Positions 19,260 through 63,865 of a DNA stretch of 64,000 nucleotides are shown in pieces. The translations under genes and the position numbers were made by a program. This DNA is from Astropecten irregularis. Its lineage: Eukaryota > Echinodermata > Asteroidea > Paxillosida > Astropectinidae. Where the stretch lies: NCBI GenBank assembly GCA_963971285.1, contig OZ020254.1:17080932-17144931 (forward strand). Direction: 5' to 3'. Within the stretch, counting starts at the first letter, position 1; each line of letters begins with the position of its first letter. Under the pieces are notes generated by a model. That model saw only the letters and a program-made list of their open reading frames with translations, was not told the origin of the DNA and ran no database searches.

Positions 19260-22200
19260 TTCGGCTCCGGCTCCGGCTCCAGCTCTGGCTCTGCTATAGA
19301 GGCTTTTGGCTGCTGTTTGGATGTCGATACTCTGGTTTGAGAAAGAAAACAGAGCTTCAGCTTCAATGATAAACCACAACCTATATTTTTAGCATATGGA
19401 TGACAGAGCCTGAGCCTAAGCCTACTCAGACTTCTTTAATTGCACAACACCCCAGTTTGTATTTCCAAGACTAAAGATGTCAACTGTTGCTATATCATGT
19501 GATGATTCGGGGCAAGCTTTTGCATAAAAATCGCGACCCAAATAGTCTCGCTTTTTGTCGTGTCCACACAGCCAAAAAAGCGCGACCCAAATCGTACCGG
19601 TACGATTCTATCAAACTGCACATACGCAGTGAAGCGCACGGGCCCGCCTTGCATGATGGGATATGAAAAACCGGTATGTTTTTGTGCACCGTTCACACAG
19701 CAAATAATCGCGACTATTTGCAAAAAGATGCACTATTAGTGCAATTTTCCACACACAAATAAGCGCGACTATTTGGGTCGCCCTGCAAATCGCGACCCAA
19801 ATAGTCGCGCTTTTTTAGTGTGTGAACGTGCCTAAAGTATTTAGTCTGAAATAGTCAGATTTTACTGTTTACAGTTGCAATGTTTCTGCCTGAATGCTGT
19901 ATTTATCCAGAAAAACCAAAGACCAAAAACAGGCTTGATCTCAGAGAGATCAAAACTCCTGTGAATAGATTTGAAAATACTTCTTCTTCTTTTTTCAAAA
20001 AGTGGACACCGTATTGGACTGGAAATTTCACAGATGATTGTTACTGTATCCTTCTGGATATTTGTGCCCATGAATCTGCATTTCTTAGACAAAATTCAAA
20101 AGTATGATATTACCTTTAAGAAAAGTAAGCATTTATCTGGACTACTGATACATCACAAGACAATTATCTTCTTCTTCCTGACAAAAAAGATGAATTTTAT
20201 CTGAATGTGTGTTCCTTTTTTTTGTTCTTAAGTTATAGTTCCAGTCTGACCACAAATCGGAAGATTGTCAAGTACTTTCAGGCTATCCGTAAAGTCACCA
20301 AACATCTTGGACCTGTCGGAGCTACTCTACATTTTATCTCTGCATTTTGCCTGTTACTGCCATTGATGTTCCTTCAAGCTAGAGCCATACAGTATGGCCT
20401 ATTAACCTCCGGTAAGTACAATATTTTAATAAGGGGCTATTATCTGTTATATACTTCATGAATATTCATGACCTATAGCCGAATCCCAATTGGTCAATTC
20501 ACCATCACGTGCCAGTGGATATACTTGCGATCATCACTCAAGCCCAAAATCCATCGCTGAACGGAAGATTGATCGCTACTCTGCGTAGCAGTTTTCCGTA
20601 AAGTGATGGATTTGGGCTTTAGCAAAGCGTTAGTAAAATCAGCCCCTGGATTCAACTCGTCTATTGAGGGCGCGTCCAAATTCTACTGGCTGAATCCAGT
20701 TCGAAGACACAGTTGCAGCCACGACTGTAGTCAGCAGCTGCAGCAAGACAATTGGGATACGGCCTCATATTCCATAAAGATCAAACGCATGCAATCTTAA
20801 TCATCAAATAACCACAAGGGAAACTGACTAAAGTCATTGAAAAGTGAATAAAGAAAAATTGACTGGAGCGGGATTCGACCCGGCGACCTCCTGAATACCC
20901 TACTGATGGGTATGGCGGTGTGTGCGTGGTTTTATGGCTTCTGACAAAGATAATTGACTATTAGGGTCACCACCAACGTAAGGCTGGATGGCTCAGTTGG
21001 TAGAGCGCTTGTACGGTATTCAGGAGGTCACCGGTTCGAATCCCGCTCCTGTCAATTGGCATGCAATCTTAATGAGGCACGTAACTGATGATGTTTATTT
21101 TGTGTGTTCTTCACAGATGCGATATGGCGATCTGAGGTACTCGTTGGAGTCACCACTATGGAGGAATTTCAAAAGTTGGCTAACTCCATGCATAATAATT
21201 CAGGCTCTTATTTCCCGTACGGTATGAACCAGACCAACTCCAAAATCATCCCGACTATCGATCCATTCAAAGTCTACATGGTCACTCTCAACTACATCAA
21301 CTACATCATTCCGTTGTTTTTCTATGGGGTCCGCTATGCCGATGTATTCTGGTATTGCCATAAGGGTTTTGCGTTCATTTTCAGCATGCAGTTGATGCTG
21401 AACGCCATTCAGTACGCGCTCGGGTTTATCGGATTCTCGTTATTGTACAAACTTCACTGGTACGGGTGGTTCACCTATGGTTTGACAGCGGATCCGGTAT
21501 TCTCAAAGCCGACTGGTTTAGTGGCTGTGTATCTCATTAATAATATAACGGTGTTTTTCTCTGCCGTTATTACTTATATGTATGGATATAGCCGTCTGAA
21601 AGAAGCACAGTATAAACAGAAAGCTGCAAGAACGGGCATCCGAGTTAATCCCACTAGCTTTCCTCTGAAATGTAACGGATATATTGCTAATATTGCTGCT
21701 GCATTAGCCATGTGTTTATTCATAGCGTGTAAAGTGCCGTTGACCATAGAATATCTCGGTGTGTACCAAGTATCCAAGGATGCAAGACTTCTCGGTTGCA
21801 TGATATTTGACACCATATACATGGCTTTTTGGTTGTTTATATGGATCGGATTCACGTTGAAACGCGACTGGAACTTCACAATTCACCCGGCAAGTCACCG
21901 GGCCGCTTCGGAGCAAGGCTCCTTCAGTTCCATTCCTCAGCACCTTCACGGCAGTGCAATCTCAAATGTGGAACTTGAACGGATCGCAGGTTTGGAGACT
22001 TTAGATGATACTCTACCCAATCAAGGGAAACGGTTCCACACGCAGGGTACGCCTAATAACAGACAGGATTCTCAGGAATGCCTACCTACAAGTATTTCTC
22101 CGTCAGGACATAAAGTCCCTCCAAAAGACTTTGCATTAAATGAATCCTCAAATGCTTACACGCGTCTGATCAGTTCAGATCCAAAACAAAGTTCCAGCAG

Positions 22201-22441
22201 TCCACCAGAACCTGTCGGCCACTCAAGCTCTCCATCTTCTCCCTCCAGAGGGCAGCAGACATCCGTCCATTTCATTAGTTCAAGGTCTCCCCACAGAAAT
22301 AGTGACCACACCTCCCAAAGTATAGAAGAAGAGTCTCTTTTAGCTCAGTCTGTTGCCGATGACTTGAATGGTGAAGAAACCTTCGAGCCTCAACCGGGAA
22401 CTAAAACTCAGGAAGGAAAATCAACCAACGGCGTGTGCTAA
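16761..22441 (+). CDS. tinc: Tincar-like eight-pass transmembrane protein
   Basis: Four coding exons join in phase: 16761-16935, 18973-19132, 20233-20411 and 21117-22441, giving 612 aa. Eight hydrophobic segments lie near residues 25-43, 66-87, 140-163, 225-245, 255-283, 304-328, 358-378 and 395-419. With the N-terminus inside, two N-glycosylation sequons (near residues 198 and 209) fall in an outer loop, basic loops fall inside, and a long Ser/Pro-rich tail (420-612) is cytoplasmic. The motifs [20 protein letters not shown] and [17 protein letters not shown] recall Drosophila tincar, an eight-pass protein of Hedgehog-dependent eye development whose biochemical role is unknown. The ATG at 16761 has good context (A at -3, G at +4). 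AATAAA follows the stop by 20 nt. Membership of the tincar family is from memory; an unrelated multipass family is the alternative. Confidence 0.72.
16994..17942. mobile_element. Nested GGGTGTCCC-ended elements, tincar-like intron 1
   Basis: CAGGGTGTCCCC at 16994 and GGGGGACACCCTG ending at 17942 are inverted ends. A third GGGTGTCCC at 17491 starts an inner unit with ends AAAACACAACACT and AGTGTTGCGTTTT. A separate palindrome (TATTAAAATTACTAGA, returning inverted near 17455) occupies 17015-17477, which suggests one element nested in or next to another. Confidence 0.65.
18352..18630. mobile_element. Near-perfect palindrome (family L)
   Basis: Two copies of a CTAGTCGAAACGTTGAGACC element face each other around a GATGAGGACTAGAGC centre near 18520. 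The outer arms read ATGTGGATCGGTTTGTGGAA and its inverted match. Single copies at 44880-45035 and 61508-61626. Confidence 0.8.
18973..19132 (+). CDS. tinc: Tincar-like exon 2
   Basis: Acceptor TTTTGCAG, donor GTAATT at 19133. Codes residues 59-111: [19 protein letters not shown] (second membrane segment) and [13 protein letters not shown]. Enters in phase 1 and leaves in phase 2. Confidence 0.75.
19140..19425. mobile_element. GGCTCN-ended MITE with expanded hexamer array
   Basis: The left end carries about 23 GGCTCC/GGCTCT hexamers (19155-19292). They are followed by the family core (complement of AACCAGAGTATCGACATCC) and GAGCCTGAGCCTAAGCCT at the right. It begins 7 bp after the tincar-like exon 2 donor. 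The minus-strand Glu-Pro frame is an artefact of the hexamer. Confidence 0.8.
19863..20119. mobile_element. TTAA-MITE-1, truncated, tincar-like intron 2
   Basis: CTGCCTGAATGCTGTATTTATC to AAAGTATGATATTACCTTTA; the left end is missing. Confidence 0.75.
20233..20411 (+). CDS. tinc: Tincar-like exon 3
   Basis: Acceptor TTCTTAAG, donor GTAAGT at 20412. Codes residues 112-171: a basic inner loop ([19 protein letters not shown]), then the third membrane segment ([16 protein letters not shown]). Confidence 0.78.
20800..21056. mobile_element. SINE-A head-to-head inverted pair, tincar-like intron 3
   Basis: A minus-strand copy (20800-20920) is followed by a plus-strand copy (20929-21056). The plus copy has a clean A box TGGCTCAGTTGG and B box GGTTCGAATCC but a poor acceptor stem. 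It ends 60 bp before exon 4. Confidence 0.75.
21117..22441 (+). CDS. tinc: Tincar-like exon 4 (terminal)
   Basis: Acceptor TTCTTCACAG. Codes residues 172-612: an outer loop with two N-glycosylation sequons, membrane segments 4 to 8, and a Ser/Pro-rich tail without recognised domain. TAA stop at 22439-22441. Confidence 0.85.
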
Positions 22442-29871: not shown

Positions 29872-48556
<18,685 letters not shown>

Positions 48557-48621: not shown

Positions 48622-49982
48622 CCACGCCTCACATTGTGTCTTAAACATCCTCATGGAAGAAAGATCAAGCAAGCCTCACTTGGTGTCTCAAACAATGGAA
48701 GAAAGATCAACCAAGCCTCACTTGGTGTCTCAAACAATGGAAGAAAGATCAACCAAGCCTCACTTGGTGTCTCAAACAATGGAAGAAAGATCAACCAAGC
48801 CTCACTTGGTGTCTCAAACAATGGAAGAAAGATCAACCAAGCCTCACTTGGTGTCTCAAACAATGGAAGAAAGATCAACCAAGCCTCACTTGGTGTCTCA
48901 AACAATGGAAGAAAGATCAACCAAGCCTCACGTGATGTCTCAAACAATGGAAGAAAGATCAACCAAGCCTCACTTGGTGTCTCAAACAATGGAAGAAAGA
49001 TCAACCAAGCCTCACTTGGTGTCTCAAACAATGGAAGAAAGATCAACCAAGCCTCACTTGGTGTCTCAAACAATGGAAGAAAGATCAACCAAGCCTCACT
49101 TGGTGTCTCAAACAATGGAAGAAATATCAGCCAAGCCTCACTTGGTGTCTCAAACAATGGAAGAAAGATCAACCAAGCCTCACTTGGTGTCTCAAACAAT
49201 GGAAGAAAGATCAACCAAGCCTCACTTGGTGTCTCAAACAATGGAAGAAACATCAACCAAGCCTCACTTGGTGTCTCAAACAATGGAAGAAAGATCAACC
49301 AAGCCTCACTTGGTGTCTCAAACAATGGAAGAAAGATCAACCAAGCCTCACATGGTGTCTCAAACAATGGAAGAAAGATCAACCAAGCCTCACATGGTGT
49401 CTCAAACAATGGAAGAAAGATTAACCAAGCCTCACTTGGTGTCTCAAACAATGGAAGAAAGATCAACCAAGCCTCACTTGGTGTCTCAAACAATGGAAGA
49501 AAGATCAACCAAGCCTCACTTGGTGTCTCAAACAATGGAAGAAAGATCAACCAAGCCTCACTTGGTGTCTCAAACAATGGAAGAAAGATCAACCAAGCCT
49601 CACTTGGTGTCTCAAACAATGGAAGAAAGATTAACCAAGCCTCACTTGGTGTCTCAAACAATGGAAGAAAGATCAACCAAGCCTCACTTGGTGTCTCAAA
49701 CAATGGAAGAAAGATCAACCAAGCCTCACTTGGTGTCTCAAACAATGGAAGAAAGATCAACCAAGCCTCACTTGGTGTCTCAAACAATGGAAGAAAGATC
49801 AACCAAGCCTCACATGATGTCTCAAACAATGAAAGAAAGATCAACCAAGCCTCACTTGGTGTCTCAAACAATGGAAGAAAGATCAACCAAGCCTCACTTG
49901 GTGTCTCAAACAATGGAAGAAAGATCAACCAAGCCTCATGTGATGTCTCAAATAATGGAAGAAAGATCAACGAAGCCTCACT
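48622..49982. repeat. 42-bp minisatellite, about 32 units, directly after CCDC186
   Basis: The unit reads ATGGAAGAAAGATCAACCAA then GCCTCACTTGGTGTCTCAAACA. Units are nearly identical; rare changes cluster at CACTTGG (CATGG, CGTGATG) and AGATCAAC. Because 42 is a multiple of three and the unit lacks stops in several frames, long frames appear on both strands (455, 443 and 439 codons). It starts 66 bp after the CCDC186 stop and probably lies in its 3-prime UTR or flank. Confidence 0.98.
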
Positions 49983-57888: not shown

Positions 57889-58262
57889 TTAAAGGTAATA
57901 TCATACTTTGGTCAGTTGTCAAAGAAATTCAGACTCACTGGCAAAAATATTAAGGAAGATACAGTAGCAGTCATCTGTGAAAATTTCAGCCCCATACGGT
58001 GCCCACTCAAGTTTTTTGAGAAAACAGTGAAAACGGCCACAGTATTCCTTAAGTCTTTTCTCTTTTATTTTTGATCTTTAAAAGATCAATAATGTTTGTC
58101 ACTGTTTTTACTCTTTTCTGGATAAATACAGCATTTCAGGCAGAACATATTTGTAACGGTATGTTTCTACCATCACCATCCTTATACCCTGTAAATAATT
58201 ATAGGTAATATCTGTGAAGATTTCTGTTTCGGTATGCTACCAAAGTATGATACTACCTTTAA
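57889..58262. mobile_element. TTAA-MITE-1, full length
   Basis: TTAAAGGTAATATCATAC to GTATGATACTACCTTTAA. Confidence 0.9.
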
Positions 58263-58622
58263 AACTTTTCTAAACTTGAAAAAAAACACGTTTTTAACCG
58301 GTGTACCGTTTTGCTGTGTACATTAACTTGTATGCCTAATGTAATTTGTCAATTGGATGAGCAAAAAGTCTTGTTTAAAAAAAAAAACTTACGTCGTATA
58401 TAAATTCTTTTTAACACTAAACGGCAAACATAGTAAATATTTGATCGTTGTGGGGATATTGCTTTTGTAACCATCGATAATTGGTGATTACAAGTGATGG
58501 CTTTGGTACTGATGTTATAGCGGTGCCGACACTGCCGTTAGCCAAAGCTCAGACCGGGGAATCCATTGCAATCCAGCTGCCCCCTGCATTCAGCTCCTAA
58601 TAATTCATGGCGTAGTCAATCC

Positions 58623-58630
58623 TATAAAAA
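58623..58630 (+). promoter_or_regulatory. TATA box, probable RGP promoter
   Basis: TATAAAAA, followed about 130 bp later by a clean donor (AAAG/GTAAGAG at 58762/58763). A TATA promoter with a short leader exon suits a tightly regulated hormone gene. Position-based inference. Confidence 0.5.
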
Positions 58631-58652
58631 GCAACGTCGGCTCCAGAAAGTT

Positions 58653-58762
58653 GTCATTTGCCCAGCCATTACCTGTCTTTCACCAAAGCACATAGCATGA
58701 GATAAATATTATCATCATTTTTGAGATCTTGATTTTTACTGTGACGTTTGGCGAGCATAAAG
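58653..58762 (+). other. RGP: Probable 5-prime noncoding exon of RGP
   Basis: The start is estimated about 30 bp after the TATA box; the end is fixed by GTAAGAG. It could splice to the acceptor TTTATTTAG at 59685, placing 16 nt of leader before the ATG at 59702. No transcript data. Confidence 0.4.
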
Positions 58763-58828
58763 GTAAGAGTTATGCTTCTTTGTATACTGATTTTGAAGCA
58801 TTGTTATTATCATTGATTACATTTTGGA

Positions 58829-59198
58829 TTAAATATCATACTTTGGTTTTCGTCAAAGAAATGCAGATTCGTGCACAAAAATATCAAGACAGATACAGTA
58901 ACAGTCATCTGTGAAAATTTCAGTCCCATACGGTGCCCACCTTTTGAGAAAACAATGGAAAACGGACACAGTATTTCCTAAGTCTTTTCTCTTTTAATAT
59001 AAAAAAAATATTAAGGGAGATACAGCTAAAGATCAAAAAAAGTTTTGGTCATTGGTTTTACTCTTTTCCTGGATAAATACAGCATTTCAGGAAGAACAAT
59101 TTGAACGGTATGTTTCTATCATCACCATCTTTACACCCTGCAAGTTATAGGTAAATCTGTAAAGATTTCTGTTTCGGTATGTTACCAAAGTATGATAA
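58829..59198. mobile_element. TTAA-MITE-1, proposed RGP leader intron
   Basis: TTAAATATCATACTTTGG to GTTACCAAAGTATGATAAG; an inner ATATAAAAAAAATATTAAGG insertion near 59000. Confidence 0.82.
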
Positions 59199-59272
59199 GT
59201 ATGAAAAGAAATCGCATGCATTTACCAAACAGACTCGACGTTCAGATAATGCCTAGCCTAATTTTCGTAGGT

Positions 59273-59617
59273 TTAAAGGCGATTTCATACTGGGTTTTGT
59301 GTTGTCAAAGAAATGCGGATTCATGGACAAATATCAAGGAAAATACAGTAACATGCAGTCATCTGTTACGGTGCCTACTTTTTAAGAAAATAGTAAAAAA
59401 AAAAAATTGAAGCGCTCTCGGTATTTTTAATTCACATGAATTTTGATCTTCCTGAGATCAAAATTGTGTTTGGTCTTTGGTTTTACTCTTTTCTGGATAA
59501 ATACAGCATTTCAGGCAGACACATTGTAACGGTATGTTTCTACCATCACCATCTTTATACCCTGTAAGTTATAGGTAAATCTGTGAATATTTCTGTTTCG
59601 GTATGCTACCTATAAAG
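59273..59617. mobile_element. TTAA-MITE-1, proposed RGP leader intron
   Basis: TTAAAGGCGATTTCATACTG to CGGTATGCTACCTATAAAG; both ends eroded. It ends about 70 bp before the exon with the ATG. Confidence 0.8.
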
Positions 59618-59701
59618 TTAGTGTATATACCTTAAAAGGCCTTATTTAGCATGTAAATTTGACGTTTCTCTTATGGTTTATTTAGAGAGAAAGGACTTGA
59701 A

Positions 59702-59921
59702 ATGGAGCTCCATCGACATAATGGCGTAGCCTCGACACCAGCCGTTATCTTGTTGATCGGCTTCATGGTCAGCATGTCTATCGTTCAAGCTGTTGAATCT
59801 CAACCAAACAGATACTGCGGAACAGACTTTCCAGCTGCTGTGTGGTCTGCTTGTGCAATGGCCAAGAGATCAAGTATAAGATCACCACCAACTTTATTTG
59901 ACATGCTCGCTAATTCTCAAG
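59702..59921 (+). CDS. RGP: RGP exon with signal peptide, B chain, C-peptide start
   Basis: Residues 1-73 and one base, donor GTAAGA at 59922. Start ATG preceded by TTGAA; the signal sequence and B chain follow directly. Confidence 0.88.
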
Positions 59922-61351
59922 GTAAGACATATACTTTTTAGTTTACTCCAGATGCCTATAGACTATAGCCAGTTTTTTAGGCCCTACCGTCAACCCCTGA
60001 ACCCCTCAAAACAAGTTCGGCAACTCAAGTTTGAGGGATGATATCTTTTTTGTTACTGATCTATGAACGGTGAAACTGGTATCATTGGAAAGCTTCATTA
60101 TTCCTCTTTACAATGATGTGCCATCTGTTGTGATTATGTAATCATGGAATGTGCATTTCCCCTGAATAAATGGCAAAGGCAGAAGTGATATATGTTGCAA
60201 AAATATAAATGAGAATACGCCATATTTGGACTGTGCTTTCACGCATCAGCGCATCAACACCAATCATCAAACTCAGTCCATCCTCGAAACGATTGGGAAT
60301 TCACTGCTGAAAACAACGAATTTTGCAACATTTTATTTTTTACGTTGCTGCATATTTATCAGGACTGTACATTCCACGATTACATTAGCATAACAAATGA
60401 CACATCATTTTAAAGAGGAATAATCACGCTTTCCAATGATATCAGTTTCACCCTTCATAGATCAGTAACAAAAAAGATACCATCCCTTGAGTAGCAGAAC
60501 TTTTTTTGAAGAGTAGGCTTTTTTTTTTAAGTCATGCAAGTAATTATTCTTGAGGCTAAAACCAAACGGTAAAAAAACATGCAACAAAGTCTGGTACGCG
60601 TTTCGATCCTAGCAGGATCTTTTTTTGAAGGCTAAATGGAGGGATTTTTTATGAAGTTCAGGACATTATTTTGGTTGCATGTGCAGGTTGCAGCAAATTA
60701 TTACTTGTTTAGTATTCTTATTTAATGAATTATGGTTGACACTCGTTTCCAGTATGGGAGAAACAAGATATATACCTGTGTACAGCATGTTATTTGGCCT
60801 AGTAAGTGTCTGTCTCACTTCAAAGAATATGACCTTTAAAAAGCACCGAACGCCATGTCCCAAATCTCTGGCTGCGGCTGCAAATTACACACGCACCTAT
60901 GGCAGCCACTAGCCAGTGACTGCAGCCGTTTCCATAGACTTGTGTGTTATTTGCTGCCGCAGCCAGATATTTAGAACACAGCCAAAGCTCCAATTTATTG
61001 GGTTTGAAAGCTTTCTTTTTAACATCCAGAGAAGTGCGATAAATAATGATTAAGTGCTGTATTTGTGATAATTTCTTGGTACAACATTGACGGTTGACTT
61101 TCTTTCGCAAAAAGTTTATTAATTTTTTGCTTCCAAAAGTTTATTTCCATCATCCATACCAAAAAGAAAGATGGCCGATCATAATATTTCTTGTCTGTGT
61201 TGTAATTGATTTGAAAACAGATGACCCGTTGAAGAACGTGTACGAGACACAGCAACGTCTGCGCAAACGCCAGGACTACGGAGGCATAGCTTACTACTGT
61301 TGTACCAGCGGATGCTCATACGAGGATCTCATAGCGTCAGGAATTTGCTAA
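59702..61351 (+). CDS. RGP: Relaxin-like gonad-stimulating peptide (RGP) precursor
   Basis: Secreted insulin/relaxin-superfamily hormone; in starfish RGP triggers spawning and oocyte maturation through cAMP. Two coding exons (59702-59921 and 61221-61351) give a 116-aa precursor, the length I recall for starfish RGP. Residues 1 to about 31 form a signal peptide (core PAVILLIGFMVSMSIV). The B chain (about 33-54) has NRYCGTDFPAAVWSACAMA, cysteines 39 and 51 (CX11C). KR at 55-56 and RKR at 88-90 are cleavage sites around a short C-peptide. The A chain (91-116) has QDYGGIAYYCCTSGC with cysteines 100, 101, 105 and 116. The YxGIAxYCCxxGC and YCxxDFxxAVxxxCA patterns match starfish RGP. The final spacing is X10, not the usual X8, so the A chain is two residues longer. 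The phase-1 intron in the C-peptide is typical for the superfamily. Membership of the superfamily is near certain; RGP orthology is likely. Confidence 0.88.
60003..60515. mobile_element. Foldback element in the RGP intron
   Basis: GATATCTTTTTTGTTACTGA and CTGGTATCATTGGAAAGC at the left return inverted at the right (TCAGTAACAAAAAAGATACC, GCTTTCCAATGATATCAG). Arms exceed 100 bp. Confidence 0.85.
60590..60715. mobile_element. TAGGATCGAAACG repeat family copy, RGP intron
   Basis: GTTTCGATCCTAGCAGGATC and TGCAGCAAATTATTACTTG. Confidence 0.6.
60845..60985. mobile_element. Small inverted-repeat element, RGP intron
   Basis: CCCAAATCTCTGGCTGCGGC with GCCGCAGCCAGATATTTAGA, and CTATGGCAGCCACT with TGCAGCCGTTTCCATAG. 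Single copy. Confidence 0.55.
61221..61351 (+). CDS. RGP: RGP exon with C-peptide end and A chain
   Basis: Acceptor TTGAAAACAG. Residues 74-116: DDPLKNVYETQQRLRKR, then the A chain ending SYEDLIASGIC. TAA stop at 61349-61351. Confidence 0.9.
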
Positions 61352-61507
61352 ACATCGACACAAAATCTCAATTTTTGGAACTCATTTTGTGGCTCTTTTT
61401 TCTCTTCTTTTTGAGGGGGTGGTCGAGTGGTACTTATAGAAGATCAGGAGTATTCGTTTTCTTTTTTTAAATTGGGAGAGGGTTTTTAACGAACTATAAG
61501 TTTCCTG

Positions 61508-61626
61508 ATGATGACTAGAGCAGGCTAGTCGAAACGTTGAGACCTAACCAGAAGTGCGACAAAATAAGAAGTGCGAAAGTACGAACGGATATTAGGCCTA
61601 CACAGTGTTTCCAAACCGACCCACAA
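61508..61626 (+). mobile_element. Family-L element
   Basis: GACTAGAGCAGGCTAGTCGA, AACGTTGAGACC and GTGTTTCCAAACCGACCCAC. Confidence 0.75.
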
Positions 61627-61719
61627 GAAGAATTACTTCAATACTTATAATTCAGGAATATGTCTGAGTTGTGTCATTGTAAGAAATAAAATGTCCCTTT
61701 TTAATGTTTTTTTTTTAAT

Positions 61720-61852
61720 CAGGAACGGATCCAAGATTTTCCAAAGGGGGCGGGGCGACGGATGCATTTTTGGGGGCGATTTGTTTTTTGTGGGGTGGGT
61801 GCTGAAAGAAAGGGACGTATGGCCCAAGCCCCTCCCCTGGATCCGCCCCTGT
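61720..61852. mobile_element. MITE with GGATCCGCCCCTG end, copy 2
   Basis: CAGGAACGGATCCAAGATTT to CCTGGATCCGCCCCTG; the interior GGCGACGGATGCATTTTTGG resembles 10370-10617. Confidence 0.65.
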
Positions 61853-61942
61853 TAATCTTTACTTTGTCAGATTGAAATAATTCATACATTCAGTAAGCTT
61901 ATCTATGTCAATTCCTTGTCGCAATGAATAATATCATTATTC

Positions 61943-62320
61943 TTAAAGGGATGGTACAGAACTGGTTTTTGCGACAGAACCGTTGCTGACAGTGAAAGTA
62001 CATTATGTAATCCATCATATACCTTAACTGACAAACCTGTAGAAGTTTGAGGTCAATCAGACATCTGGGTTACGGTACGAGAAAATATTGAAAACCCGTG
62101 TACGGAGAACTGTACACATTTCAACGAATGAATAAAAGGCTTCGAAGCGATTTATTCCAATCGGAAAATAGTTTCATTTATTTCTCAACGAATATGGCAT
62201 TTCAGACAAAAACATTTCATGGGATGTTTTCGCCTATCATCACCATTATACTGTGTAAGTTTTATGTGAATCTGTGATCTTGAAGTGTATTATCTTACAA
62301 ATTCTGTGCCATCCCTTTAA
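61943..62320. mobile_element. TTAA-MITE-3, copy 2
   Basis: TTAAAGGGATGGTACAGAAC to TTCTGTGCCATCCCTTTAA. The strong similarity to 57363-57727 suggests recent movement. Confidence 0.9.
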
Positions 62321-62393
62321 CCTATTTTGAATGAAATTTTCGTGAAAATTGGCTCCTATCTCGAGAAAAACAGAGTGAAACGTTTTGAAACCG

Positions 62394-62459
62394 TATAGCG
62401 TGCATTGATTCGAGTTTATTAATTTTGTAGCGTGCATTGATTCGAGTTTATTAATTTTG
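62394..62459. repeat. Perfect tandem duplication, about 33 bp
   Basis: TAGCGTGCATTGATTCGAGT followed by TTATTAATTTTG occurs twice head to tail. Confidence 0.9.
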
Positions 62460-62759
62460 GGAAGGAACACTTTCTTGACATAGTCTTTCATCGTCATTCA
62501 CAGAAACTTAATTTTATGTTATCGATTATTTAATAATTTCATAGTAAAATAAAAGTATACATCCACTGTTATTGGTATCATCATTTAATGTAACCTCCTT
62601 TGTCATTTATTTTAATTCGCCAATTTAAAAAAAAAAATTGTTTTTATGAGGATCGTTTATAAAATGCTGCAGTTTTTTGGTTCATGTTAGTTGGAATCTC
62701 AGTAATTGTTTAATACATTTCGTCCACCAAGTGAACATCAACCTATATATACGTTCCCT

Positions 62760-63089
62760 TTAAAGGTAAAATGCATGATTATTGGTAAAGGTCACAGAAC
62801 AGCACTCAAACTTACGGTCTAACCCAGCATGTAGATTTTTAAGCTCAATCTGACATCTGAGTCACGAGAAAATAGCGAAAACGCGACACTTTTTTTTTCT
62901 TATAAAACGTAAAGAATGGTTCTGATCTTACCCGAAGATCAAGACTGTTTTCGGTCTTTGTTTGACTAATTTCTGGATAAATACACCATTTCATGCGGGA
63001 ATTTTAAACATCTTCATACCTTGAAATGTAGGTAAATCTGTGAACATTTCTGTTTTGGGTATGTTACCAATCCTGTACTGTACCTTTAA
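62760..63089. mobile_element. TTAA-MITE-2
   Basis: TTAAAGGTAAAATGCATGAT to AATCCTGTACTGTACCTTTA. Confidence 0.82.
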
Positions 63090-63609
63090 TAATTTTTGAG
63101 GGACCCGGTTGGCAAACAGGTAGATAGAGTACAATCTCTTGCACATGGGGGCGGGGCTGTGGTTACAGGGGGCGGCAAGATGCTCAGATTAAGCCGCTAA
63201 CACTGCAGGAAATTAAAGCTTCAGTAAAGACCCCATACCCGAGACGGTAATCTCCGTACTAAACCAGTTTGAACCATGTTGTAGCCGTTGGAGTTGAATA
63301 AATAATACCATTTAGTACCGTTTCATGTAAATTGCCATTGGGTTTAGTTGTCAATAATTAAAAAGGAAATCAGAATATATATGTCTGTGCCGAAGTCATA
63401 ATCACTTGTGCAACATTGTATTTTCGACTGTATGTTCCCTAGATTAATCTCATTTTTAATTTATAACAAAATTATGAATAATTTAAGGTGTTTTGAAAAC
63501 CGAGGCTTAGGCTCGGGCTCAGCACTGGCGCGCTATTCTGGCTGAACTGTGTAGGCCTATACGGTTTGTTTCATTGCAGCTTTGAATTTCGTTGACAGTT
63601 GGTTTCTTG

Positions 63610-63865
63610 TTAAAGGTAATTTTATACTTAGTTTTTTGTCAAATAATTACAGTTTCATGGGCAAAAATATCAAGGAAGATACAGCAAACGATCAAAAATA
63701 ATGTTGGTCACTGGTTTAACTCTTTTCTGGATAAATACAGCATTTCAGATAGAAACATGTTAACTGCAGGTTTCTACCACCACCATCTTCGTACCCTGTA
63801 AGTTATAGGTAAATCTGTGAAGAGTTCTGTTTTGGTATGCTACTAAAGTATGATACTACCTTTAA
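63610..63865. mobile_element. TTAA-MITE-1, internally deleted
   Basis: Both ends are present (TTAAAGGTAATTTTATAC and AAGTATGATACTACCTTTAA), but the centre with GTGGGCACC is gone, leaving 256 bp. A GGCTTAGGCTCGGGCTCAG fragment precedes it at 63500. Confidence 0.85.

What the first reader, a model, noticed from the sequence alone, without database searches (positions are those of the whole stretch)
59702..61351. RGP-type spawning hormone gene with a longer A chain (CCX3CX10C)
The B and A chains match starfish RGP at almost every recognisable signature position, and the precursor is 116 aa. The spacing before the last A-chain cysteine is 10 instead of 8. This would change the loop after the second A-chain helix and possibly the receptor fit. 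It may mark a lineage-specific form of the hormone.
Basis: partly seen in the sequence, partly recalled or inferred. Interest (0 to 1): 0.85.

Follow-up and report, generated by a model that had tools for sequence, protein, structure and literature searches.

The report
Second starfish spawning-hormone gene (RGP2 type)
This is an intact starfish gene for a relaxin-like hormone that most likely belongs to the second of two known starfish spawning-hormone types; its slightly longer A chain is real but may simply be a feature of that second type.

Summary
The gene is real: two coding exons (59702-59921, 61221-61351), one phase-1 intron, a 116-aa relaxin-family precursor with B chain CX11C and A chain CCX3CX10C. 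No GT-AG intron could shorten X10. The window's own genome points elsewhere. A gene on contig C16 is a standard RGP1 with CCX3CX8C, its coding exon 1 of 208 bp matching the exon length reported for Patiria pectinifera RGP. Mitochondrial gene order is starfish-like. The window gene is therefore the second RGP-type gene, best explained as RGP2 (formerly RLP2), a published second gonadotropin of starfish. Its 26-aa A chain starting with Gln, and Gly-Ile before the last Cys, fit described RGP2 traits. Eight of nine insulin-family A domains seen in this genome are X8; only this one is X10. Whether X10 is general to RGP2 or special to this lineage stays open: one paper states X8 for Asterias rubens RLP2, and I could not see any RGP2 sequence.

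The parts
59611..59616 (+). TATAAA upstream of the gene, possible promoter element
   Evidence: motif match only; inference
59702..59921 (+). coding exon 1 (220 bp): signal peptide, B chain, first part of C-peptide; ends in phase 1
59702..59791 (+). predicted signal peptide, residues 1-30 (hydrophobic core about 13-25, cleavage after VQA)
   Evidence: hydropathy; cleavage site inferred by eye
59792..59863 (+). B chain, residues 31-54 (VESQPNRYCGTDFPAAVWSACAMA), CX11C
   Evidence: N-terminus inferred
59864..59869 (+). Lys-Arg cleavage site (residues 55-56)
59922..61220 (+). single intron, 1299 bp, GT-AG, phase 1, inside the C-peptide
60034..60487 (.). MITE-like inverted repeat inside the intron (arms of 158 nt, 81% complementary); not part of the hormone
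61221..61351 (+). coding exon 2 with stop: rest of C-peptide, cleavage site, A chain
61265..61270 (+). Lys-Arg cleavage site (residues 89-90, context RLRKR 86-90)
   Evidence: sequence
61271..61348 (+). A chain, 26 residues (QDYGGIAYYCCTSGCSYEDLIASGIC), CCX3CX10C
61316..61345 (+). the X10 stretch SYEDLIASGI between the third and fourth A-chain cysteines
61685..61690 (+). AATAAA, possible polyadenylation signal 334 nt after the stop
   Evidence: motif match only

Best explanation
The gene is the starfish RGP2 (RLP2) ortholog, the paralog of the standard spawning hormone RGP1. Inferred mechanism, by analogy with published starfish RGP2: the precursor loses its signal peptide, forms two B-A disulfides and one within A, and is cut at the two Lys-Arg sites, giving a secreted A/B heterodimer. 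That peptide activates the relaxin receptor ortholog RXFP/LGR3 (cAMP) in the gonad, leading to 1-methyladenine production, oocyte maturation and spawning. Shown here: gene structure, cleavage sites, cysteine pattern, a separate RGP1 in the same genome, a starfish-like mitochondrion. Inferred: disulfides, processing, receptor and function. The two extra A-chain residues most likely sit between the second A-chain helix and the last cysteine (ASGIC) and probably correspond to the Gly-Ile motif published for RGP2 A chains.
For: Single phase-1 intron in the C-peptide, signal peptide and B chain in one exon, stop directly after the last A-chain Cys, as published for RGP/GSS genes. Gly before the third A-chain Cys and Cys as last residue, the published marks of RGP against IGF. 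A separate canonical RGP1 in the same genome: L003, C16, CX11C and CCX3CX8C, coding exon 1 of 208 bp, 117 aa, against a reported exon 1 of 208 bp for P. pectinifera RGP. Searching the genome with that RGP1 gives, beyond itself, the window exon 2 at E 0.09 and one hit with a stop at E 2.3. Starfish-like inversion of 16S-ND2-ND1 in the mitochondrion (PMC3308324). Tree: RGP rows against the rest 90.4/91, RGP1 pair without the window gene 94/90. Window against RGP1 of its own genome 11 of 33 non-Cys positions, RGP1 against recalled P. pectinifera RGP 18 of 33; published: A. rubens RLP2-RGP 37%, A. rubens RGP-P. pectinifera RGP 64%. A chain of 26 aa as in A. rubens RLP2; A chain beginning with Gln as in A. 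cf. solaris RGP2; Gly-Ile before the last Cys, and Ala at B-chain position +6 where L003 and recalled P. pectinifera RGP have Met, compatible with the described RGP2 marks. Two RGP types are reported as conserved in Asteroidea.
Against: PMC4772807 states that A. rubens RLP2 has CCxxxCxxxxxxxxC, that is X8, whereas this gene has X10. No RGP2 sequence was available, so orthology rests on described traits, not on an alignment. That the published Gly-Ile motif lies before the last Cys is my inference. The A. rubens RLP2 B chain is given as 26 aa, here 24 by my cleavage guess. In this genome the Gly before the third A-chain Cys is not special to RGP: L014, L016 and L018-L020 have it too, and the L018-L020 frames also end in Cys, so these two marks do not separate RGP from multinsulin-like genes. 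Both cross-hits between the two RGP genes are exon 2 only and weak (E 0.064 and 0.09). The Pfam match is below cut-off. No expression evidence.
Confidence: 0.77

Rival explanations
1. A third, lineage-specific RGP-type paralog that is neither RGP1 nor RGP2, with its own A-chain geometry, perhaps with a new role.
For: X10 differs from the X8 stated for A. rubens RLP2; in the small unrooted tree the window gene joins between the RGP1 pair and the other genes.
Against: Searches with either RGP protein found only these two RGP-type genes, and starfish are reported to have RGP1 and RGP2; a third type would require loss or non-detection of RGP2. Non-detection is possible: only the best candidates are scored, and the PF00049 family search missed both RGP genes.
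Confidence: 0.11
2. One reading: the animal's main RGP (RGP1) with a lineage-specific longer A chain.
For: Match of both chains to recalled P. pectinifera RGP (8 of 18 and 10 of 20 aligned positions); precursor of 116 aa like P. pectinifera RGP.
Against: A standard RGP1 with X8 is encoded elsewhere in the same genome and pairs with P. pectinifera RGP to the exclusion of the window gene (94/90). The 24 RGP orthologs surveyed in PMC10216564 have identical cysteine positions.
Confidence: 0.05
3. An IGF-, Dilp7-, octinsulin- or multinsulin-type gene.
For: Weak Pfam insulin-family match only; Gly before the third A Cys and a terminal Cys are shared with the multinsulin-like genes here.
Against: Six cysteines not eight, no D/E extension, signal peptide and B chain in one exon; IGF-like, Dilp7-like and multinsulin-like genes are found separately in the genome; tree split 90.4/91.
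Confidence: 0.03
4. A decaying copy or an assembly error, the X10 being noise.
For: No transcript evidence; repeats of several families crowd the locus.
Against: Intact frame, splice sites, cleavage sites and all six cysteines; the difference from X8 is exactly two codons in frame. A 6-nt repeat (CTCATA, 13 nt apart) exists in the stretch but not as a tandem copy.
Confidence: 0.04

Closest known systems
Starfish RGP2 / RLP2 (Asterias rubens ArRLPP2, GenBank KT601729; also reported in A. cf. solaris, P. pectinifera, P. miniata, M. glacialis)
   Same: Second relaxin-like gene of starfish; phase-1 intron in the C-peptide; A chain of 26 aa (A. rubens); A chain starting with Gln (A. cf. solaris); a Gly-Ile in the A chain beyond the one found in the RGP1s compared here; signal peptide about 30 aa; C-peptide 32 aa here and 33 in A. 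rubens
   Different: X10 here against X8 stated in the text for A. rubens; B chain 24 aa (my cleavage guess) against 26; the sequences themselves could not be compared
Starfish RGP1 / GSS (Patiria pectinifera RGP; L003 in this genome)
   Same: Relaxin-like A/B heterodimer precursor, YC..[DE]F..AV...C in B, Y.GIA..CC..GC in A, Cys as last residue, same intron position and phase
   Different: RGP1 has CCX3CX8C and a 24-25-aa A chain; 11 of 33 non-Cys positions shared with the RGP1 of the same genome
Vertebrate relaxin/INSL peptides (best PDB match: INSL3 A chain, E 0.26, not significant)
   Same: A chain YCC.SGC...DL; relaxin subclass with an A chain ending at or near Cys
   Different: X8 spacing; the window B chain has no RxxxRxxI/V receptor-binding motif (by eye), as reported for starfish RGP and RLP2

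Membership tests
Insulin/relaxin superfamily | B chain CX11C and A chain CCX3CX8C | tested here: not met
   B chain met; A chain is CCX3CX10C, so the strict motif fails while the six-cysteine frame is kept
Insulin/relaxin superfamily | signal peptide - B - C - A with basic cleavage pairs | tested here: met
   hydrophobic leader, KR 55-56, RLRKR 86-90
Insulin/relaxin superfamily | Pfam PF00049 at curated cut-off | tested here: not met
   21 bits against 23; the canonical RGP1 of this genome also fails, 18.8 bits
RGP/GSS (relaxin-like gonad-stimulating peptides) | only intron in the coding region is phase 1 in the C-peptide; signal peptide and B chain in one exon | tested here: met
RGP/GSS (relaxin-like gonad-stimulating peptides) | Gly before third A-chain Cys, A chain ends in Cys, no D/E domain (marks against IGF) | tested here: met
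   sequence; but Gly is also present in L014, L016 and L018-L020 of this genome, so the mark is not exclusive
Starfish RGP1 | cysteine positions identical to the 24 surveyed RGP orthologs (X8) | tested here: not met
   X10; another gene, L003, meets it
Starfish RGP2/RLP2 | second, diverged RGP-type gene beside RGP1 in a starfish genome | tested here: met
   starfish origin from mitochondrial order and from L003
Starfish RGP2/RLP2 | Gly-Ile motif in A chain and Ala in B chain, absent from RGP1 | tested here: inconclusive
   both present at places where L003 and recalled P. pectinifera RGP lack them, but the published alignment (Fig. S2 of PMC11863921) was not readable
Starfish RGP2/RLP2 | A chain CCX3CX8C, as stated in text for A. 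rubens RLP2 | tested here: not met
   X10 against PMC4772807
Starfish RGP2/RLP2 | clusters with known RGP2 sequences | not testable with these tools
   I found no RGP2 sequence to compare with
Starfish RGP2/RLP2 | gonadotropic activity through RXFP/LGR3 | not testable with these tools
   needs peptide and assay
Octinsulin | eight cysteines | tested here: not met
   six cysteines

The most novel reading that the evidence does not exclude
[quoted passage not shown] It would be a departure from the CCX3CX8C spacing described for the superfamily, in a hormone whose sister copy in the same genome keeps X8.
Probability: 0.35. Interest if true: 0.5.

Novelty: new member of a known kind. Interest (0 to 1): 0.32.

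Why it matters
Starfish RGP2 triggers spawning but activates the known receptor RXFP/LGR3 more weakly than RGP1 in cells, most notably in A. cf. solaris (PMC11863921), and how the two peptides are related physiologically is called unclear (PMC10216564). An intact RGP1/RGP2 pair in one genome, one with X8 and one with X10, gives a defined structural difference to test for that potency gap. It also suggests that a search by the strict CCX3CX8C signature can miss members.

Tried and rejected
Reference sequences: I found no starfish RGP2 sequence. A search for the X10 motif written as text gave 2 papers, on plant cysteine-rich peptides and on a conotoxin, by title and abstract not on insulin-family peptides (listing only). 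Host tracing by an abundant repeat gave nothing: 21 copies in the window with up to 3 mismatches, 0 exact matches in viral contigs and 0 in GTDB contigs. A search for related proteins in viral contigs confirmed none of 8 pattern matches. Pfam on nine single window frames, two of them the RGP exon frames, gave nothing over cut-off.

Other hits: besides its own two exons and L003, nine hits at E 0.53-3.7 (L004-L012). A scan of loci L001-L012 for an A-chain motif found intact A chains only in the window gene (L001, L002) and L003; two loose matches, in L005 and L008, lie on the other strand away from the hits and I took them for chance. The PF00049 family search gave 0 hits at the default threshold and 8 at E up to 10, and neither RGP gene was among them, so the list of nine insulin-family genes is a lower bound.

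Rejected: a hidden intron or alternative acceptor shortening X10; IGF, Dilp7, octinsulin or multinsulin identity; RGP1 identity. The exon-2-only structure model is weak: no alignment, no B chain, pTM 0.38.

Left out of the tree: L013 and L016, 2 of the 9 insulin-family genes seen in this genome, because no B domain was found for them. B domains of the multinsulin-like genes L018-L020 were taken from the CX11C frame found on the same strand. Names such as IGF-like, Dilp7-like and multinsulin-like are mine, by resemblance to the descriptions in PMC8286064.

Full report
What is there. The window holds an intact two-exon coding region on the + strand: exon 1 at 59702-59921, a 1299-bp GT-AG intron, and exon 2 at 61221-61351 with the stop. 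The precursor has 116 residues: a hydrophobic leader, B chain with CX11C, Lys-Arg at 55-56, a C-peptide interrupted by the phase-1 intron, RLRKR at 86-90, and a 26-residue A chain QDYGGIAYYCCTSGCSYEDLIASGIC. The spacing of 10 before the last cysteine is real. The only GT between the two cysteine codons lies three bases before an AG, so no canonical intron could remove two codons.

More than chance. In 200 dinucleotide shuffles of the window, an A motif with a nearby basic pair and a terminal Cys-stop appeared in 0, and the specific B motif in 1; looser versions are common by chance (A motif alone in 50, CX11C with a basic pair in 171). Pfam's insulin family matches at E 0.00069, just under its curated score; the best PDB match is the A chain of INSL3 at E 0.26, not significant. 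The canonical RGP1 of the same genome scores even lower in Pfam (18.8 bits).

Which animal. The window's genome is held as G000, 475.7 Mb in 168 contigs, unnamed; the window is C18:17,080,932-17,144,931. I take contig C168, 16,335 bp, as its mitochondrion. On it 16S rRNA, ND2 and ND1 lie on the strand opposite to COX1, COX2, ATP6, ND4 and ND5 (16S from Rfam, protein gene names given by me from the translations except COX1, found by Pfam). PMC3308324 (passages) reports an inversion of 16S, ND1 and ND2 between starfish and sea urchins; that the starfish are the ones with these genes opposite to COX1 is recalled. The same paper says brittle stars group with starfish by gene order, and PMC8286064 (section 11) reports duplicated GSS in all Asterozoa and in sea cucumbers, so neither fact alone proves a starfish. 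The RGP1 gene below settles it in my judgement.

The other RGP gene. A protein search of G000 with the window precursor gave its own two exons, then a stretch on C16 at E 0.064 (L003), then nine hits at E 0.53-3.7 without an RGP-like A chain at the hit. L003 encodes a standard RGP1: coding exon 1 of 208 bp, intron of 625 bp in phase 1, 117 aa, B chain TYCDDEFHMAVYEAC followed by QGRKR, A chain ADYDGIASFCCVHGCTSDDISVVC with X8. PMC6442644 (passages) gives exon 1 of 208 bp, an intron of 1411 bp and 116 aa for the P. pectinifera RGP gene. The reciprocal search from L003 gave, beyond itself, the window exon 2 (E 0.09) and one poor hit with a stop (E 2.3). In both directions only exon 2 was hit. 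The Gly-Arg after the B chain is an amidation signal that PMC10216564 reports for RGPs of Astropectinidae and Spinulosida (section 5 read), a hint at the order of this starfish and no more.

Placing the window gene. On 33 shared non-cysteine positions the window gene matches L003 at 11 and recalled P. pectinifera RGP at 13, while L003 and P. pectinifera match at 18. In a maximum-likelihood tree of 8 rows (7 of the 9 insulin-family genes seen in G000, plus the recalled P. pectinifera chains) the RGP rows separate from IGF-like and multinsulin-like rows with 90.4/91, and the two RGP1 rows pair without the window gene with 94/90. The alignment has only 42 columns and is hand-anchored on the cysteines, so these values are modest evidence. 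Published identities fit: A. rubens RLP2 against RGP 37%, A. rubens RGP against P. pectinifera RGP 64% (PMC10952978, passages). Two published marks of RGP against IGF, Gly before the third A-chain Cys and a terminal Cys (PMC6389678, passages), are met, but in this genome Gly is also present in L014, L016 and L018-L020, and L018-L020 also end in Cys, so they carry little weight by themselves. [quoted passage not shown]

RGP2. Two relaxin-type peptides, RGP1 and RGP2 (formerly RLP2), are reported as conserved in starfish, and both induce spawning (PMC11863921, background section). A. rubens RLP2 is a 119-residue precursor with a 30-residue signal peptide, a 33-residue C-peptide and a 26-residue A chain (PMC4772807, passages); here the numbers are 116, about 30, 32 and 26. 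The A chain of A. cf. solaris RGP2 begins with Gln, as here. RGP2 A chains carry a Gly-Ile motif absent from RGP1. Both RGP1 chains compared here have a Gly-Ile before the Cys pair, so the published motif must be another one, and the window gene has a second Gly-Ile immediately before the last Cys. I infer that the extra two residues and the motif are the same thing. Against this, the text of PMC4772807 states the X8 pattern for A. rubens RLP2. I could not see the alignments, so this conflict is open.

The X10 itself. Of nine insulin-family A domains seen in G000 (a lower bound, since the family search missed both RGP genes), eight have eight residues between the last two cysteines and only the window gene has ten. 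Against recalled P. pectinifera RGP the best-scoring place for the gap is after the helix leucine (SYEDL|IA|SGIC, score 76), the next best two residues later (73), so the exact place is uncertain. A model of exon 2 alone, without alignment or partner chain, has a helix at Tyr33-Ala38 and a coil at SGIC (mean pLDDT 79.1, pTM 0.38).

How it most likely works. By analogy with starfish RGP2: a secreted A/B heterodimer acting on RXFP/LGR3, raising cAMP; RGP2 is weaker than RGP1 on this receptor in cells, most notably in A. cf. solaris, yet similar or slightly weaker in ovary assays. PMC8286064 argues instead for a receptor tyrosine kinase for GSS (passages). Nothing here decides between them for this peptide.

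Verdict.

Noticed in passing
L003 (G000:C16:20133110-20134088) with L014, L015 and L017 (C16:19802075-19863889): The RGP1 gene lies about 269 kb from an IGF-like gene on the same contig. [quoted passage not shown] this linkage bears on that.
   Followed up: partly
window 36152-36197 (-) and 36738-36757 (+): A histone 3'UTR stem-loop match (Rfam Histone3, 35 bits against a cut-off of 34) and an inverted exact copy of its 20-mer core (2 matches, 0.01 expected) flank a stretch that looks like a reverse-transcriptase remnant; I recognised no histone gene beside them (the remnant reading is by eye).
   Followed up: partly
window 60034-60487: MITE-like inverted repeat (158-nt arms, 81% complementary) inside the intron of the RGP gene.
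   Followed up: no
window, 21 places; five of them at 58115-63747: A dispersed repeat with the core TTTCTGGATAAATACAGCATTTCA occurs 21 times in 64 kb with up to 3 mismatches (0 expected), five of them within 6 kb around the RGP gene.
   Followed up: partly
window 48653-49982: A 42-bp minisatellite of about 32 copies, 97% matches, is open in several frames (TMEERSTKPHLVSQ in one).
   Followed up: no
window 21092-22441: A 449-aa open frame looks like a multi-membrane-span protein, by recall similar to protein tincar; no Pfam match.
   Followed up: no
G000:C131:32162-33484 (L021); G000:C25:9951047-9952018 (L023): C131 has a COX1 gene in a 552-aa open frame without stops, probably bacterial, so the assembly may hold contaminant or symbiont contigs; C25 carries a COX1 fragment with 7 TGA, probably a nuclear copy of mitochondrial DNA.
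   Followed up: no
G000:C24:4562547-4575336 (L018-L020): Three multinsulin-like genes in a small cluster with X8 A chains, as PMC8286064 describes for other starfish.
   Followed up: partly
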